Of a stretch of 64,000 nt of DNA, positions 45,899 through 50,465 are shown one piece after another. Numbering within the stretch: the first letter of the stretch is position 1; each line of letters opens with the position of its first letter. Origin of the DNA: Verrucomicrobiota bacterium (GTDB lineage: Bacteria; Verrucomicrobiota; Verrucomicrobiia; Opitutales; Opitutaceae); NCBI GenBank assembly GCA_016222805.1, contig JACRQG010000022.1, positions 132,760-196,759 on the forward strand. Reading direction: 5' to 3'. A program made the position numbers and the translations under genes. The notes under the pieces are model-generated. The model was given only the letters and a program-made list of their open reading frames with translations, did not search any database and was not told where the DNA came from.

Positions 45899-46019
45899 GG
45901 CGGCGTCGCGTCGGGGCGACGATGCGCCGCGCCGCCCGCCGCCGTCCGTGGCCGGCCAACCGGACGCGGCCATTTCGGCTTTGCCCCCCGGGAATCGATT
46001 CCCAATCTCCCGCGCCAGC

Positions 46020-47540
46020 ATGAGTTCCTCCCCCTCCCCCTGCGTTCCCGCCCCGGCCGAGTCCACCGCCACTTTGCCGGAGCACCCGCAGTTCCTCGGC
46101 CACCCGCGGCCCCTCTACACTCTGTTCTTCGCGGAGCTCTGGGAGCGATTCTCCTATTACGGCATGCGGGCGCTGCTGACGCTCTACATGCTGGCGCCGG
46201 TGGCCGTGGGCGGGCTGGCGCTGCCCAACAAGGAGGCGAGCCTCATCTACGGCACCTACACGATGTCGGTCTACATGCTGTCGATCCCCGGCGGCGCGCT
46301 GGCGGACGGCATCCTCGGCTCGCGCCTCGCGGTGCTGCTCGGCGGCATCGTGATCGCCTGCGGCCACTTCTCGATGGCCTTCCCCAGCGAGTTCACGTTC
46401 TACCTCGGCCTCGTTCTGATCGTTCTCGGCACCGGCCTGCTCAAGCCGAACATCAGCGCGATGGTCGGCCAACTCTACGCCGCGGGGGATCCGCGCCGCG
46501 ACGCCGGTTTCTCGATCTTCTACATGGGCATCAACGTGGGCGCGTTCATCGCCCCCCTCGTCACCGGCTTCCTCGCCCAGCACAGCAAGTTCAAGGAGAT
46601 GCTCGCCGGGTGGGGCTTCAACCCGGTCCATTCCTGGCACTGGGGCTTCGCCGCCGCCGGCGTCGGCATGGTGCTCGGGTTGATCGTCTTCGTGCTGTTC
46701 GGCGGCGGCCTCAAGCAGGTCGGTCCGCCCCCCGCCCGCCCGCCGGGCGCCTGGAAGAAGCCCGTGATCATGCTGCTCGGCACCCTCGTCCTCTGGGGCG
46801 TCGTGAAGCTCTCCGACACCCCCGGATTCACCTGGCTGCGCCTGCTCTTCATCCTCGTGCCGATCGGGCTGATGCTCTGGTTCGGCTACTCGGGGAATCC
46901 CGAAACCCGCCGGTTGGGCGCGATCTTCTTCTTCTTCATCGGCGCCTTCATCTTCTGGGCCCTGTTCGAGCAGGCCGGGACGTCCTTGACCGTCTTCGCG
47001 GAAAAGAACACCGCCACCCACGTCGGCGGCGTCGAGGTGCCCTCCTCCTGGTACCAGTCGGCCAATCCCATCTTCGTCATCGCCCTCGCCCCGCTCTTCG
47101 CCCTGCTCTGGACCAGGCTCGGCGACCGCCAGCCGTCGAGCCCGATGAAGTTCACCATCGGACTGTTCTTCCTCGCCCTGGCCTTCAGCCTGATGATCCC
47201 GGCGGCGCGGCTCGCCGTGGCCGGGCGCGTCAGCCCGCTCTGGCTCCTCGGGCTCTACTTCCTGCAGACCATCGGTGAAATGTGCCTCAGCCCGGTCGGG
47301 CTCAGCACGTTCACCAAGGTCGCGCCGCGTCACCTGGTCGGAGCCATGCTCGGCATCTGGTTCCTCGGCGCCGCCTTCGGCAACAAGTTCGCCGGCGTGC
47401 TCGCGGCCAGCCTCGGCGAAGGCGAGGCGGACCATCTCGACCGCTTCTTCGGCCAGCAGGCGCTGGCGGTCTTCCTGGTCGCCGGCGTCTTCCTCGCGCT
47501 TGTGCCCTGGGTCCGCCGGCGCATGGGCGGCGTGCGTTGA
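46020..47540 (+). CDS. POT/PTR2-family proton-coupled peptide transporter
   Basis: 506 residues from ATG 46020. About thirteen membrane helices. Family signature 'ELWERFSYYGMRALL' (E42-RFSYYG) is the H+-coupled peptide-transporter motif, and 'SIFYMGINVGAFIAPLVTGFL' is the second PTR2 signature. The central loop is short. It imports di- and tripeptides with protons. The M14 peptidase upstream would supply peptides. A perfect 16-base GC palindrome follows the stop codon. Its leader shows no Shine-Dalgarno sequence. Confidence 0.92.
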   Translation: MSSSPSPCVPAPAESTATLPEHPQFLGHPRPLYTLFFAELWERFSYYGMRALLTLYMLAPVAVGGLALPNKEASLIYGTYTMSVYMLSIPGGALADGILGSRLAVLLGGIVIACGHFSMAFPSEFTFYLGLVLIVLGTGLLKPNISAMVGQLYAAGDPRRDAGFSIFYMGINVGAFIAPLVTGFLAQHSKFKEMLAGWGFNPVHSWHWGFAAAGVGMVLGLIVFVLFGGGLKQVGPPPARPPGAWKKPVIMLLGTLVLWGVVKLSDTPGFTWLRLLFILVPIGLMLWFGYSGNPETRRLGAIFFFFIGAFIFWALFEQAGTSLTVFAEKNTATHVGGVEVPSSWYQSANPIFVIALAPLFALLWTRLGDRQPSSPMKFTIGLFFLALAFSLMIPAARLAVAGRVSPLWLLGLYFLQTIGEMCLSPVGLSTFTKVAPRHLVGAMLGIWFLGAAFGNKFAGVLAASLGEGEADHLDRFFGQQALAVFLVAGVFLALVPWVRRRMGGVR

Positions 47541-47658: not shown

Positions 47659-48276
47659 ATGTCCCTCCGCGCCTGGTTTCCCACCTTCATCTACTGCGAA
47701 CGCCTGCAGCAGACGGGCCTGGAGCGGCTGAATGTCGAACTCGCCGACGAATGCCGCCGCCTGCGGGACTTCGACCGCGCCGGGCGGCGCTGGTGCGAGA
47801 CGAACTACCCGGGCGGATACACCAGCTACGCCTCGATGAACGAACTGCACCGGTTCTCGAGCACGTTTGCCGAGCTGGAGAAGAAGCTGAACCGCCATCT
47901 CCGCGCCTTCGCCCGCGCGCTCGATTTCAACCTCGGCGGCCGGCCGCTCCAGCTCACCGATCTCTGGGTCAACATCATGCCGCCGACCGCGGCGCACTCG
48001 CTGCACCTGCATCCGTTGTCCTGCATCAGCGGCACCTACTACGTCGCCACGCCGGCAGGCTGCCCGGGGCTGAAATTCGAGGATCCCCGGCTGGATCGCT
48101 TCATGGCCGCGCCGCCCCGTCGCACCGGCGCCCGGCGGGAGAACCAGACCCACATCACGTACCCGGCGGAGGCGGGCAACGTCGTCCTGTTTGAAAGCTG
48201 GGTTCGCCACGAAGTGCCGCCCAATCGCGTCGCGGAGGAGCGGATCAGCGTCAGCTTCAACTACCACTGGGCCTGA
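47659..48276 (+). CDS. TIGR02466-family putative 2OG-Fe(II) oxygenase
   Basis: 205 residues, the usual size. The likely iron site is H116-L-H118 in 'SLHLHPLSC' with a distal H184 in 'WVRHEVPPNR', and R195 in 'EERISVSF' would bind 2-oxoglutarate. The 'LTDLWVNIMPP' and 'GTYYV' strands fit a cupin-like jelly roll. Family members are uncharacterised; many occur in marine bacteria and phages. The substrate is unknown. It is a single gene with a pyrimidine-rich leader, followed by a hairpin and the lipoprotein gene. Confidence 0.8.
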   Translation: MSLRAWFPTFIYCERLQQTGLERLNVELADECRRLRDFDRAGRRWCETNYPGGYTSYASMNELHRFSSTFAELEKKLNRHLRAFARALDFNLGGRPLQLTDLWVNIMPPTAAHSLHLHPLSCISGTYYVATPAGCPGLKFEDPRLDRFMAAPPRRTGARRENQTHITYPAEAGNVVLFESWVRHEVPPNRVAEERISVSFNYHWA

Positions 48277-48328: not shown

Positions 48329-49054
48329 ATGTGTCCTCGCCTCCTCCTCTCGCGCGCTGAAATCGCCGGCCTTGGCGCCGCCGCGATAGTTCTGCTGGCC
48401 GGCTGTGGCACCGATCCCGGCTCCCACCGGCACGCGGGTTCACCCGCCGCTCCGCCCTCCGCGCGGAGCCAGCCCGCCCCGCCGGAGATGGAGGCGCACG
48501 CCCGCTATTTCGGCGGCCAGTTGGAGGCGGAGGTTCTCCTCGGACGCAGCGCGTTTGCGCCCCGCGCCGAGGGGCCCACCGCGGATCGTGGCGAGCGCGG
48601 TCGCGGCGGGCCCCCGCCCGGAGGCTTCGGCGGCGGTCGTCGCGGCGGCGGACCCGGCAGTGGCGGCACGGAACGGGGCGGCGGGCCGCCCCGGACGCGC
48701 CCGGACGGCGAATCCGCTCCCAACCTGCACGCCAGCAATGCGCCCCCGGTGCTGTTTCGCCTGCGACTGACCAACCATGAGGCCGCTCCGCTGGAGGTAG
48801 AGATAACGGAATTCAACTCCGCCCTGGGGAACTTCGTCGTGTTGCCGCGGAAACTCGAGGTTCCCGCCGGCGGCTCGGCCGAAGTCGATCCCATGACCTC
48901 GCGACTCGGCCTGAGTGCGGATGAGGTTCCGCTGACGCTGGCGATCCGCTCCCCGCGCGGCACTGAAAAACAGGTACTTACCCTCCGCCCGCGCACGAGT
49001 CCGGCACCGGCGCCCACGCCAGCCTCACCTTCCGTCGTCCCGACCGTGCCGTGA
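48329..49054 (+). CDS. Gly/Pro/Arg-rich lipoprotein
   Basis: 241 residues from ATG 48329. The lipobox 'IVLLAGC' ends at C26. The middle (about 85-135) is low complexity, rich in Gly, Pro and Arg. The C-terminal part is beta-patterned ('VLFRLRLTNHEAAPLEVEIT', 'NFVVLPRKLEVPAGGSAEVD'), like an Ig-type fold. No homolog is recognised. The stop codon overlaps the thpR start (GTGA), so the two are coupled although no functional link is apparent. Confidence 0.7.
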   Translation: MCPRLLLSRAEIAGLGAAAIVLLAGCGTDPGSHRHAGSPAAPPSARSQPAPPEMEAHARYFGGQLEAEVLLGRSAFAPRAEGPTADRGERGRGGPPPGGFGGGRRGGGPGSGGTERGGGPPRTRPDGESAPNLHASNAPPVLFRLRLTNHEAAPLEVEITEFNSALGNFVVLPRKLEVPAGGSAEVDPMTSRLGLSADEVPLTLAIRSPRGTEKQVLTLRPRTSPAPAPTPASPSVVPTVP

Positions 49055-49629
49055 CCGCTCCCGATCTACCGGCGGCCCCGGCCGAGAGCACCCGCCGCCT
49101 TTTCGTCGCCCTGCCGCTGCCGGACTCGATCCGCGACCTCCTTTCCCAACTCGCCGAGCCGTTGCCCGGCGTCTCCTGGACCCGGCCGACCCAACTCCAT
49201 CTCACCCTGCGGTTCCTGGGCGACGTTTCCGCGGCGTGCCTGGATGACCTGGTCGCGCGGCTTGCGGCCGTGCGGGTGGCGCCGTTTGTGCTCCCGCTGG
49301 AAGGCCTCGGCACGTTTCCCCCCAACCGCCCGCCCCGCGTCGCGTGGCTCGGCGTGGGGGCCGGCCATCCGCGCCTCTTCCAGCTTCGCCAACGGCTGGA
49401 TGATGCCCTGCTGGCCTCCGGCCTGCCGCTCGACGTCCGCACGTTTCACCCACATGTGACGCTCGCACGTTGTACCGAACAGGCCGCCGGCCTGCCCGCC
49501 TGGCTGCACCGGCACCGCGATTTCGGTGCTCCGCCCTTTCGCGCCACCGCCTTCACCCTCTACGCCAGTGAACTCCGGCCCGGCGGCGCCATCCATACCC
49601 CGGTACAGCGCTTCCCGCTGGCGGATTGA
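49051..49629 (+). CDS. thpR: RNA 2',3'-cyclic phosphodiesterase
   Basis: 192 residues from GTG 49051. It belongs to the 2H phosphoesterases, which open 2',3'-cyclic phosphate at RNA ends (formerly called 2'-5' RNA ligase). The two HxTx motifs are visible: H50-L-T-L in 'QLHLTLRFLGD' and H135-V-T-L in 'HPHVTLARC'. 'RLFVALPLPDSIRDLLSQL' is the typical N-terminus. Length matches the family (about 180). It overlaps the lipoprotein stop by four bases (GTGA). Confidence 0.92.
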   Translation: MTAPDLPAAPAESTRRLFVALPLPDSIRDLLSQLAEPLPGVSWTRPTQLHLTLRFLGDVSAACLDDLVARLAAVRVAPFVLPLEGLGTFPPNRPPRVAWLGVGAGHPRLFQLRQRLDDALLASGLPLDVRTFHPHVTLARCTEQAAGLPAWLHRHRDFGAPPFRATAFTLYASELRPGGAIHTPVQRFPLAD

Positions 49630-49654: not shown

Positions 49655-49864
49655 ATGCTGGTCATTCGTCGCATGGTCGATCGCCGCCGCGCGTACACGG
49701 CGCTCCTGCTCCCGGGGGAGCCGCCGCGCATCTTCCCGACGACCGATCAGGAACACGCCCGCATCCTGCAGATCTACAAGCAGGACCGCCCCTACGACGG
49801 GGTCTGCAACGACTTCACCGCCTTCGAGCTCCTGCCGGAGCCGTCGCGCCGGTCCGGCGACTAG
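49655..49864 (+). CDS. Small hypothetical protein
   Basis: 69 residues from ATG 49655. It is basic at the N-terminus ('IRRMVDRRRAYTALLLPGE') and has 'FPTTDQEHARILQIYKQDRPYD' in the middle, a helix-prone segment with normal amino-acid use. No signal peptide or domain was recognised. It follows thpR after 25 bases and precedes the SeqA-like gene by 88 bases, all on one strand. Confidence 0.5.
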   Translation: MLVIRRMVDRRRAYTALLLPGEPPRIFPTTDQEHARILQIYKQDRPYDGVCNDFTAFELLPEPSRRSGD

Positions 49865-49952
49865 TCGCAGCCTCTCCCGGGTTCGTCGCAACGTCGGGGT
49901 GCTTTGCCGCCGTCTCCTCGCGGGACCCGGCCAACCGGTTTACCGTCGCGAC

Positions 49953-50465
49953 ATGAAAACGATCGAAATCAGCGACGAGGTTTACCTGGCCATGCAACGC
50001 CTGGCCACTGGGTTCCATCGTTCCCCCGACGAGGTGCTGGCTTCGCTCCTCAACCTCTCCCGCCCCGCGCCCGGGGCCGCTGAGCCGATCGCGGCGTTTG
50101 TTCTCAGCAGCGAATTCCGCACGAAGTTCACCGACGCCGACAAGTACCTCGCCCTGCTCGGCTGGATCGCGGCGCGGCACGCCGCGGAGTTCAGCGAGTT
50201 CATCCTCAGCCTTTCCAGCGGCCGCAAGTACCTGAGCATGACCCGGGAGGAAATCCTCGACACCTGCCGCCACAACCAGGCCCGCCAGATCCCGGGCACG
50301 CATTACTGGGCGATCATGAACATCGACTCCGCGACCAAGAGCCGGTTCCTGTCCCGGGTGCTCGAGTTCATCGGCTACCGGCCGCCCGTGATCGAATTCG
50401 TCTGCAGCCTGTTCGGAACCCGGATTGCGCCCCGCCGCAGCCGCCTGGCGGCGCTGGTGCACTGA
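49953..50465 (+). CDS. SeqA-like DNA-binding protein
   Basis: 170 residues from ATG 49953. Both SeqA domains are recognisable. The N-terminus 'MKTIEISDEVYLAMQRL' matches the start of E. coli SeqA ('MKTIEVDDELY'), the oligomerising RHH-like domain. The C-terminus, residues 48-155, matches the DNA-binding domain: 'FVLSSEF', 'GRKYLS' (90-95), 'QIPGTHYWAIMN' (112-123) and 'VIEFVCSLFG'. By comparison with E. coli, N123 takes the place of N150 and D125 that of N152, which contact hemimethylated GATC. SeqA blocks re-initiation and organises new DNA in Dam+ gammaproteobacteria; its occurrence here would be unusual. Other DNA specificity is possible. Confidence 0.8.
   Translation: MKTIEISDEVYLAMQRLATGFHRSPDEVLASLLNLSRPAPGAAEPIAAFVLSSEFRTKFTDADKYLALLGWIAARHAAEFSEFILSLSSGRKYLSMTREEILDTCRHNQARQIPGTHYWAIMNIDSATKSRFLSRVLEFIGYRPPVIEFVCSLFGTRIAPRRSRLAALVH

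What the first reader, a model, noticed from the sequence alone, without database searches (positions are those of the whole stretch)
49953..50465. SeqA-like protein outside its usual lineage
Both halves of SeqA are visible: the MKTIE N-terminus and the C-terminal DNA-binding part with 'PGTHYW' and a following Asn. SeqA is known from gammaproteobacteria that methylate GATC with Dam. Here it appears in a genome that looks verrucomicrobial, with no Dam methylase gene in the window. The change at D125 (Asn in E. coli) could alter methyl or base recognition. It may control replication, or bind other modified DNA.
Basis: partly seen in the sequence, partly recalled or inferred. Interest (0 to 1): 0.75.

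Follow-up and report, generated by a model that had tools for sequence, protein, structure and literature searches.

The report
SeqA relative without Dam in Opitutaceae
A relative of SeqA, the protein that marks newly copied DNA in E. coli, sits in a different bacterial phylum where it seems to work without the usual methylation mark and to be switched by signals in its own promoter.

Summary
The 170-aa ORF at 49953-50465 is a real SeqA-family protein: Pfam SeqA C-domain 48.3 bits (cut-off 25.5), full-length match to solved SeqA 3fmt, and SeqA structures lead the fold search. It is an Opitutaceae gene in conserved chromosomal context. It does not look like a working copy of E. coli SeqA. Of five published GATC contacts R118 and N150 are kept; R116, T117 and N152 (Asp in nearly all relatives) are not. 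Its presence does not follow Dam-family methylases (8 of 21 carriers, 12 of 27 others); one 99%-complete carrier, of a derived subfamily, has none of four methylase families. GATC is not clustered just upstream of dnaA nor enriched. The promoter is the surprise: an ACCGGT palindrome about 20 bp before the start codon in 28 of 30 subfamily-A genes (6 of 629 other ORFs), another palindrome in subfamily C, none in derived subfamily B. Further upstream, in some genes, are 9-bp repeats at 21-bp spacing that also mark a LytTR two-component operon. Best reading: a methylation-independent, LytTR-controlled, probably autoregulated SeqA-fold DNA-binding protein. Autoregulation, target sites and role are inferred, not shown.

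The parts
49953..50465 (+). SeqA-family protein, 170 aa (P0001)
   Evidence: Pfam PF03925 48.3 bits; PDB 3fmt E 2.4e-10; Foldseek first five hits SeqA
49953..50060 (+). N-terminal SeqA_N / VapB-antitoxin-like segment, residues 1-36 (dimerisation, possibly DNA binding; function inferred)
   Evidence: 1xrx E 0.0035 by profile; of 25 members SeqA_N matches 13 (best E 0.002) and VAPB_antitox 16 (best E 0.0016), all weak
50091..50408 (+). SeqA C-terminal DNA-binding domain, residues 47-152
   Evidence: PF03925 match
50316..50327 (+). loop M122-N123-I124-D125, aligned with E. coli T149-N150-T151-N152
49933..49940 (.). palindrome AACCGGTT, 13-20 bp before the start codon: candidate operator
   Evidence: only copy in the 64-kb window, where 0.49 is expected; ACCGGT in 28 of 30 subfamily-A upstream regions
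49925..49944 (.). extended operator with further ACC half-sites at 49925 and 49942
   Evidence: information content peaks 9 and 8 bp before ACCGGT in 27 aligned promoters; sequence
49861..49869 (+). degenerate LytTR-type repeat CTAGTCGCA (-92); overlaps the stop codon of the small ORF
   Evidence: found with its -71 partner as one array with 2 mismatches
49882..49890 (+). LytTR-type repeat TTCGTCGCA (-71)
49903..49911 (+). degenerate repeat TTTGCCGCC (-50), in the same 21-bp register
   Evidence: read by eye from the sequence; not scored by a tool
49655..49864 (+). small upstream ORF, 69 aa, no Pfam or NCBIfam match
   Evidence: its family recurs in 13 of 35 de-duplicated loci
49051..49629 (+). 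LigT-like 2'-5' RNA phosphodiesterase, conserved neighbour
   Evidence: PF02834; 11 of 35 loci
47659..48276 (+). 2OG-Fe(II) oxygenase, conserved neighbour
   Evidence: PF13759; 18 of 35 loci
45948..47540 (+). POT-family transporter, conserved neighbour
   Evidence: PF00854; 9 of 35 loci

Best explanation
It is a SeqA-fold DNA-binding protein of Opitutaceae that works without Dam methylation. Shown: SeqA homology over both halves, a conserved chromosomal locus, a changed recognition loop (MNID for TNTN), no link with Dam-family methylases or GATC clusters, a conserved subfamily-specific palindrome 20-30 bp before the start codon, and, in part of the family, 9-bp repeats at 21-bp spacing that also stand at a LytTR histidine kinase/response regulator operon. 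Inferred: the protein binds DNA as a dimer, reads ACC(G/T)G half-sites, represses its own promoter by covering the palindrome, and its gene is switched by the LytTR regulator. What else it binds, and whether it acts on transcription or the nucleoid, is not known; I think a local or small-regulon transcription regulator is most likely.
For: SeqA homology and fold. Conserved neighbourhood. Loop: MNID or MNLD in 27 of 27 A proteins, MNID in 6 of 6 C, other forms in 7 of 8 B. No Dam link: PF02086 in 8 of 21 profile-positive and 12 of 27 profile-negative genomes; G407 (B type) carries the gene and has no match to PF02086, PF01555, PF02384 or PF00145. Operator: ACCGGT within 70 bp upstream in 28 of 30 A genes; 6 of 629 other mechanical ORFs of 150 aa or more in the same loci have it within 35 bp. 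Clade pattern: C has ACCT-N7-AGGT in 5 of 6 and CAGGT-TAT-ACCTG in the sixth (by eye); B, nested in A on the tree, has neither in 8 of 8, nor in a ninth, L043 (by eye). LytTR repeats: pairs with at most 1 mismatch each occur 7 times at spacing 21 and at most once at any other spacing from 12 to 69 in 817 kb (5 of the 7 are promoters the motif came from, 1 lies inside an ORF). Search of 38 genomes: 77 places against 18 for the reversed pattern (my sums). Of the 30 loci fetched from it, 10 hold LytTR kinase and/or regulator relatives, 5 the SeqA-like gene, 15 neither. In L051 the regulator has PF04397 and the kinase PF06580.
Against: No binding data: another regulator could read the palindrome. 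AACCGGTT is not more enriched in 5 carriers than in 4 non-carriers, and a longer consensus gave few sites, mostly in what looks like coding sequence: no regulon found. L040 and L079 of the A set lack ACCGGT. Covariation of loop and palindrome is not strict: L042 (B) keeps MNID and L040 keeps MNLD, yet both lack ACCGGT. The methylase-free carrier G407 is of B type; each A-type genome tested with all four families has some methylase match, so methylation is not excluded for A. T117 also varies among gamma SeqAs (V. cholerae; PMC6225831 passage). LytTR-type repeats were found in register in only 12 of 30 A and 4 of 8 B promoters. The N-domain link to ribbon-helix-helix antitoxins is weak.
Confidence: 0.45

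Rival explanations
1. The palindrome belongs to another, unidentified regulator; the SeqA-like protein is a nucleoid-associated protein with many weak or unknown sites.
For: Operator and protein both track the same clades by descent, so covariation does not prove binding; no regulon for ACCGGT was found. Covariation with the loop is imperfect (L040, L042).
Against: Among the neighbour families that recur I recognise no other regulator, though only some were named by Pfam. A and C genes have different palindromes with the shared half-site ACC(G/T)G; G319 holds an A gene with ACCGGT and a C gene with ACCT-N7-AGGT.
Confidence: 0.25
2. It binds hemimethylated sites other than GATC, made by the various methylases of each host.
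For: N150 and R118 equivalents are kept in all A and C proteins counted; PF02384 matches 17 of 18 carriers tested. In G002 a second SeqA-like gene lies next to an Eco57I-like methylase.
Against: No one of four methylase families is in all carriers; G407 has none of the four. A CcrM-like enzyme shared by six carriers was not seen at that score in the others.
Confidence: 0.15
3. It is a functional SeqA that sequesters newly replicated origins through hemimethylated GATC.
For: Full-length SeqA homology; two of five GATC contacts kept. GATC is dense elsewhere in some carriers: up to 13 in 400 bp in G029's dnaA region (L093:2546), though 11 in 400 bp also occurs in G029 away from dnaA.
Against: 0-4 GATC in 500 bp upstream of dnaA in 17 carriers, 0-3 in 12 non-carriers; GATC observed/expected 0.73-1.08 in samples of 12-86 kb from 19 carriers; no link to Dam-family methylases; NCBIfam SeqA equivalog score 54.5 against 185. 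E. coli has 11 GATC in minimal oriC (PMC6225831, passage read).
Confidence: 0.08
4. The gene is contamination from a gammaproteobacterium or a recent transfer.
For: SeqA is best known from gammaproteobacteria (recalled).
Against: Identity to gamma SeqA is 21-25%; the tree parts 41 A/B/C proteins from 4 gamma proteins by long branches; synteny with related verrucomicrobial loci.
Confidence: 0.01

Closest known systems
SeqA of Escherichia coli and other gammaproteobacteria (PF03925 + PF17206)
   Same: Same two-domain order, fold and length class; equivalents of R118, N150, K156 and PGT.YW kept in the window protein.
   Different: About 23% identity; N152 to Asp, T149 to Met, T151 to Ile, R116 and T117 not kept; of the oligomerisation residues I21 and A25 are Phe and Pro and T18 is Ala; no Dam partner, no GATC cluster found; conserved palindrome in its promoter.
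VapB-type / ribbon-helix-helix autoregulators (PF02697)
   Same: Weak N-terminal sequence similarity (best E 0.0016 in 25 members); palindrome overlapping the promoter, as such autorepressors have (recalled).
   Different: No toxin partner gene recognised; C-terminal half is a SeqA domain.
LytTR two-component regulon (PF04397 regulator, PF06580 kinase)
   Same: 9-bp direct repeats spaced 12 bp fit the canonical LytTR site, 9-bp repeats 10-13 bp apart; RcoM1 repeats are TTCNNGCA (PMC11347149, passages read).
   Different: The SeqA-like gene is a probable target of the regulon, not a component; direction of control not shown.

Membership tests
SeqA family (homology) | Significant match to the SeqA C-terminal domain | tested here: met
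   PF03925 48.3 bits, cut-off 25.5
SeqA family (homology) | Fold of solved SeqA | tested here: met
   Foldseek 3fmt E 3.0e-6, 1lrr TM 0.77 by target length
SeqA family (homology) | SeqA_N domain at its curated cut-off | tested here: not met
   11.5 bits against 23 for the window protein; the 25-row profile reaches 1xrx at E 0.0035
SeqA, replication initiation regulator (NCBIfam PRK11187 equivalog) | Equivalog cut-off 185 bits | tested here: not met
   54.5 bits
SeqA, replication initiation regulator | GATC contacts R116, T117, R118, N150, N152 | tested here: not met
   2 of 5 identical in the window protein, R118 and N150 (contact list from PMC6225831 passages, where T117 also varies in V. cholerae)
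SeqA, replication initiation regulator | Coexists with Dam | tested here: not met
   PF02086 in 8 of 21 profile-positive genomes; the window genome's one match is beside a tail-fibre-like gene and scores 70.5 against the Dam cut-off of 114.85
SeqA, replication initiation regulator | GATC cluster at the origin | tested here: not met
   0-4 per 500 bp upstream of dnaA in 17 carriers; origin position inferred from dnaA and, by eye, DnaA-box-like sites; not visible in the window genome
SeqA, replication initiation regulator | Preference for hemimethylated DNA | not testable with these tools
   needs binding assays
Autoregulated transcription factor | Conserved palindrome in its own promoter | tested here: met
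   28 of 30 A promoters; 6 of 629 other ORFs
Autoregulated transcription factor | Protein binds that palindrome | not testable with these tools
   inferred from clade pattern only
LytTR target gene | 9-bp direct repeats, 10-13 bp apart, upstream | tested here: met
   window array with 2 mismatches; 12 of 30 A and 4 of 8 B promoters

The most novel reading that the evidence does not exclude
In Opitutaceae the SeqA fold has become a methylation-independent transcription regulator: it reads ACC(G/T)G half-sites directly through its changed loop and/or N-domain, represses its own gene, and is switched by a LytTR two-component system. That would make hemimethylated-GATC reading one specialisation within a wider DNA-binding family.
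Probability: 0.35. Interest if true: 0.78.

Novelty: new variant of a known kind. Interest (0 to 1): 0.6.

Why it matters
SeqA is usually treated as the partner of Dam (recalled). A SeqA clade that does not follow Dam, with a changed recognition loop and a ready-made candidate binding site, makes a question testable: did SeqA begin as an ordinary sequence-specific regulator, or did this clade lose methylation reading? It also gives a concrete DNA fragment to test first. In the held library no paper names SeqA together with Opitut* (0 papers); SeqA with Verrucomicrobia gave 7 papers and five phrases such as 'SeqA homolog' gave 5, seen only as listings, none with a title or abstract about SeqA in this phylum. 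Subscription papers are mostly not held.

Tried and rejected
Phage origin: no relative confirmed in viral contigs, and no match in phage records with this protein or E. coli SeqA. Plasmid records hold 14 matches, all in gammaproteobacterial records at 21-25% identity.

GATC at the origin: not supported on 29 dnaA-upstream regions. A scan of palindromic words in carriers against non-carriers showed no clear candidate; the top words were GC-rich ones. GATC-dense 400-bp windows occur in dnaA regions (at most 5-13 in each of 20 stretches, one of them a non-carrier's) and elsewhere in carriers (at most 7-11 in each of 11 stretches) alike.

A dedicated methylase: six carriers (G000, G002, G034, G129, G217, G378) share a CcrM-like enzyme, 56-77% identical, and I saw none of that type at that score in the other 42 genomes; most lower-scoring matches were not compared. 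This is post hoc. In G217 and G378 the gene beside it looks like a DpnI-type nuclease and in G129 like a MutH/Sau3AI-type one (from memory; sequences), so I read it as restriction-modification and dropped it as a partner. I recognised no nuclease beside it in G000, G002 or G034, so this is not closed.

TTCGTCGCA as the SeqA-like protein's own site: considered, since SeqA binds sites a few helical turns apart (recalled), and dropped when the same arrays appeared at LytTR kinase/regulator operons, also in genomes without the gene (G018, G021, G004, G023). Only the 30 loci returned were compared, of 77 places.

A genome-wide ACCGGT regulon: not found. In one search only some places were listed, so most sites were counted but not read; I read 16 of the 30 loci fetched.

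Dropped or changed rows: one search used 27 promoters; L066 (near-copy of L062), L079 and L040 (both without ACCGGT) were left out there and are counted. L043 (B, G129) was missing and the tree and was read. L077 was first given a wrong start codon and was corrected by eye. mis-cut its windows and only its distance count is sound. Five named loci (L050-L053, L055) are the same contigs as unnamed ones, and L076 the same contig as L038; I counted each once where I could tell.

Full report
What is there. Window 49953-50465 (+) encodes 170 aa beginning MKTIEISDEVY. Pfam finds the SeqA C-domain at residues 47-152, E 1.2e-12, 48.3 bits; the SeqA_N model is below cut-off. NCBIfam's SeqA equivalog scores 54.5 bits against a cut-off of 185, so it is not an equivalog. 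PDB SeqA 3fmt matches over 1-152. A model from 25 aligned relatives has mean pLDDT 76.7, with a confident C-domain and a weak N-terminal part; its first five Foldseek hits are SeqA structures, four of them at E <= 0.001.

Where it occurs. The assembly is 7.9 Mb in 51 contigs, 95.6% complete. PF03925 matches 9 of 57 close genomes and 15 of 387 genomes drawn from the phylum, 14 of the 15 in the window genome's own family. A scan of one genome for each of 84,980 species, with two short peptide patterns from seven A-type proteins, gave 30 loci, all in records titled as Verrucomicrobia or groups within it (Opitutaceae, Opitutales, Opitutus, Cephaloticoccus, Pelagicoccus and others); such patterns would miss distant SeqAs. 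Contigs titled Opitutaceae bacterium have the same lengths as those of the same-genus genomes G019 and G008. Neighbour families recur: of 35 de-duplicated loci, a permease on the other strand downstream in 19 (LptG-like by eye), a 2OG oxygenase in 18, a 69-aa protein in 13, a LigT-like gene in 11, a POT transporter in 9. No relatives in phage records or viral contigs.

Subfamilies. A tree of 47 proteins parts 4 gamma SeqAs (with L036) from 41 Opitutaceae-type ones; B (8) and C (6) are each one side of a fully supported branch, and B lies inside A through forks of moderate support. L036 (G179) and L001 (a second copy in G002) have long branches and uncertain places. The loop aligned with E. coli 149-152 (TNTN) is MNID in 25 and MNLD in 2 of 27 A, MNID in 6 of 6 C, and MTID (4), LTID, MSID, LNIA and MNID (1 each) in 8 B. 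R118 is kept in 27 of 27 A, 6 of 6 C and 5 of 8 B; R116 is Arg in 6 of 27 A. The contacts R116, T117, R118, N150, N152 and the oligomerisation residues T18, I21, A25 are as listed in PMC6225831 (passages read); the original structure paper was not held. In A, I21 is Phe (Ile in L040) and A25 is Pro, so filaments as in E. coli are doubtful (inference).

Methylation. In 48 genomes PF02086 (Dam family) occurs in 8 of 21 genomes positive with the A3 profile and 12 of 27 others (this split counts G208, whose gene is broken, as positive, and G179 and G047, which match only PF03925, as negative). PF01555 occurs in 35 of 48. Among 18 carriers PF02384 is in 17 and PF00145 in 9. G407 (99% complete, 40 contigs, B type) has none of the four. 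G029, a one-contig A-type genome, has no PF02086 or PF00145, a weak partial PF01555 and two PF02384 matches, so methylation cannot be excluded for A. The window genome's one Dam-family match scores 70.5 against NCBIfam's Dam cut-off of 114.85, matches phage methylase families, and stands beside a tail-fibre-like protein.

Origin. By eye, DnaA-box-like sites stand upstream of dnaA in carriers and non-carriers; a strict box scan found few. GATC count in the 500 bp before dnaA is 0-4 in 17 carriers and 0-3 in 12 non-carriers. GATC observed/expected is 0.73-1.08 in 19 carriers, on 12-86 kb each. Denser windows exist (13 GATC in 400 bp at L093:2546, downstream of dnaA's start in G029) but at most 7-11 in 400 bp also occur in stretches away from dnaA. 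The window genome's own region is not seen: its contig ends 180 bp beyond the dnaA match.

Promoter. Upstream regions of A genes have a common palindrome: ACCGGT lies within 70 bp of the start in 28 of 30, mostly 18-22 bp before it. Background is 0.33 per kb in the same loci, and 6 of 629 other mechanical ORFs have it within 35 bp. In the window AACCGGTT occurs once, at 49933-49940. C genes have ACCT-N7-AGGT 28-29 bp before the start in 5 of 6 (2 copies in 291 kb of dnaA-region stretches, which are mostly richer in GC) and CAGGT-TAT-ACCTG in the sixth. In L074 it fills the 17-bp spacer between TTGACA and TATTTA (by eye). None of 8 B genes has either, nor L043 (by eye). I read this as an operator for autorepression; that the protein itself binds it is inference, supported only by the clade pattern, which has two exceptions (L040, L042).

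Second signal. TTCGTCGCA or close forms stand at about -50, -71, -92 and beyond in 12 of 30 A and 4 of 8 B promoters. In 817 kb, pairs with at most one mismatch each occur 7 times at spacing 21 and at most once at any other spacing from 12 to 69; one of the seven is in an ORF (L063). A search of 38 genomes with up to 2 mismatches gave 77 places against 18 for the reversed pattern (sums). Of 30 loci fetched, 10 hold relatives of a LytTR kinase and/or regulator, 5 the SeqA-like gene, 15 neither. The L051 operon's regulator has a LytTR domain and its kinase PF06580. The window genome has such an array before its kinase relative (L169). LytTR sites are described as 9-bp direct repeats 10-13 bp apart, RcoM1 as TTCNNGCA (PMC11347149, passages read). 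So the SeqA-like gene is probably a target of this system in part of the family. Other arrays precede a TonB-receptor-like gene (L186) and an oligopeptide-binding-like gene (L179), named by eye.

Verdict. A real, clade-specific SeqA variant that does not follow Dam, with its own regulatory signals. Membership in the SeqA family by descent is met; membership in SeqA the origin-sequestration protein is not. New variant of a known kind.

Noticed in passing
L023:8699-11778 (G002:C26): A second, more divergent SeqA-like gene lies next to an Eco57I-like adenine methylase and an unnamed 319-aa ORF, as in a restriction-modification module. A SeqA relative in such a module would be odd.
   Followed up: partly
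window 49655-49864: A 69-aa ORF whose family recurs upstream of the SeqA-like gene in 13 of 35 loci, without Pfam or NCBIfam match.
   Followed up: partly
L190 (G000:C36), L191 (G008), L192 (G143), L195 (G017), L196 (G004): Arrays of TTCGTCGCA at 21-bp spacing around a LytTR kinase/regulator operon, with a second array 1-4 kb away; a candidate LytTR regulon.
   Followed up: partly
L033:4788-10900 (G000:C50): Possible prophage with a Dam-family methylase and a tail-fibre-like gene.
   Followed up: partly
L084, L087, L088: CcrM-like methylase beside genes that look like DpnI-type (G217, G378) and MutH/Sau3AI-type (G129) nucleases, names from memory.
   Followed up: no
G143:C1:2579601-2583433 and G319:C1:3634878-3634895: AACCGGTT occurs four times within 4 kb in G143 and as an overlapping double site in G319; possible further operators.
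   Followed up: no
P0001 residues 1-36: Weak match to the N-terminus of NCBIfam NF047386, a T4SS effector family named SepA (E 0.0038, far below its cut-off).
   Followed up: no
L037 and L049 (G319): One single-contig genome carries both an A-type and a C-type SeqA-like gene, each with its own type of palindrome.
   Followed up: partly
L078; G208:C10: SeqA-like genes that match only over about the first 84-92 residues, so the C-terminal half seems lost; in L078 the ACCGGT palindrome is still there.
   Followed up: no
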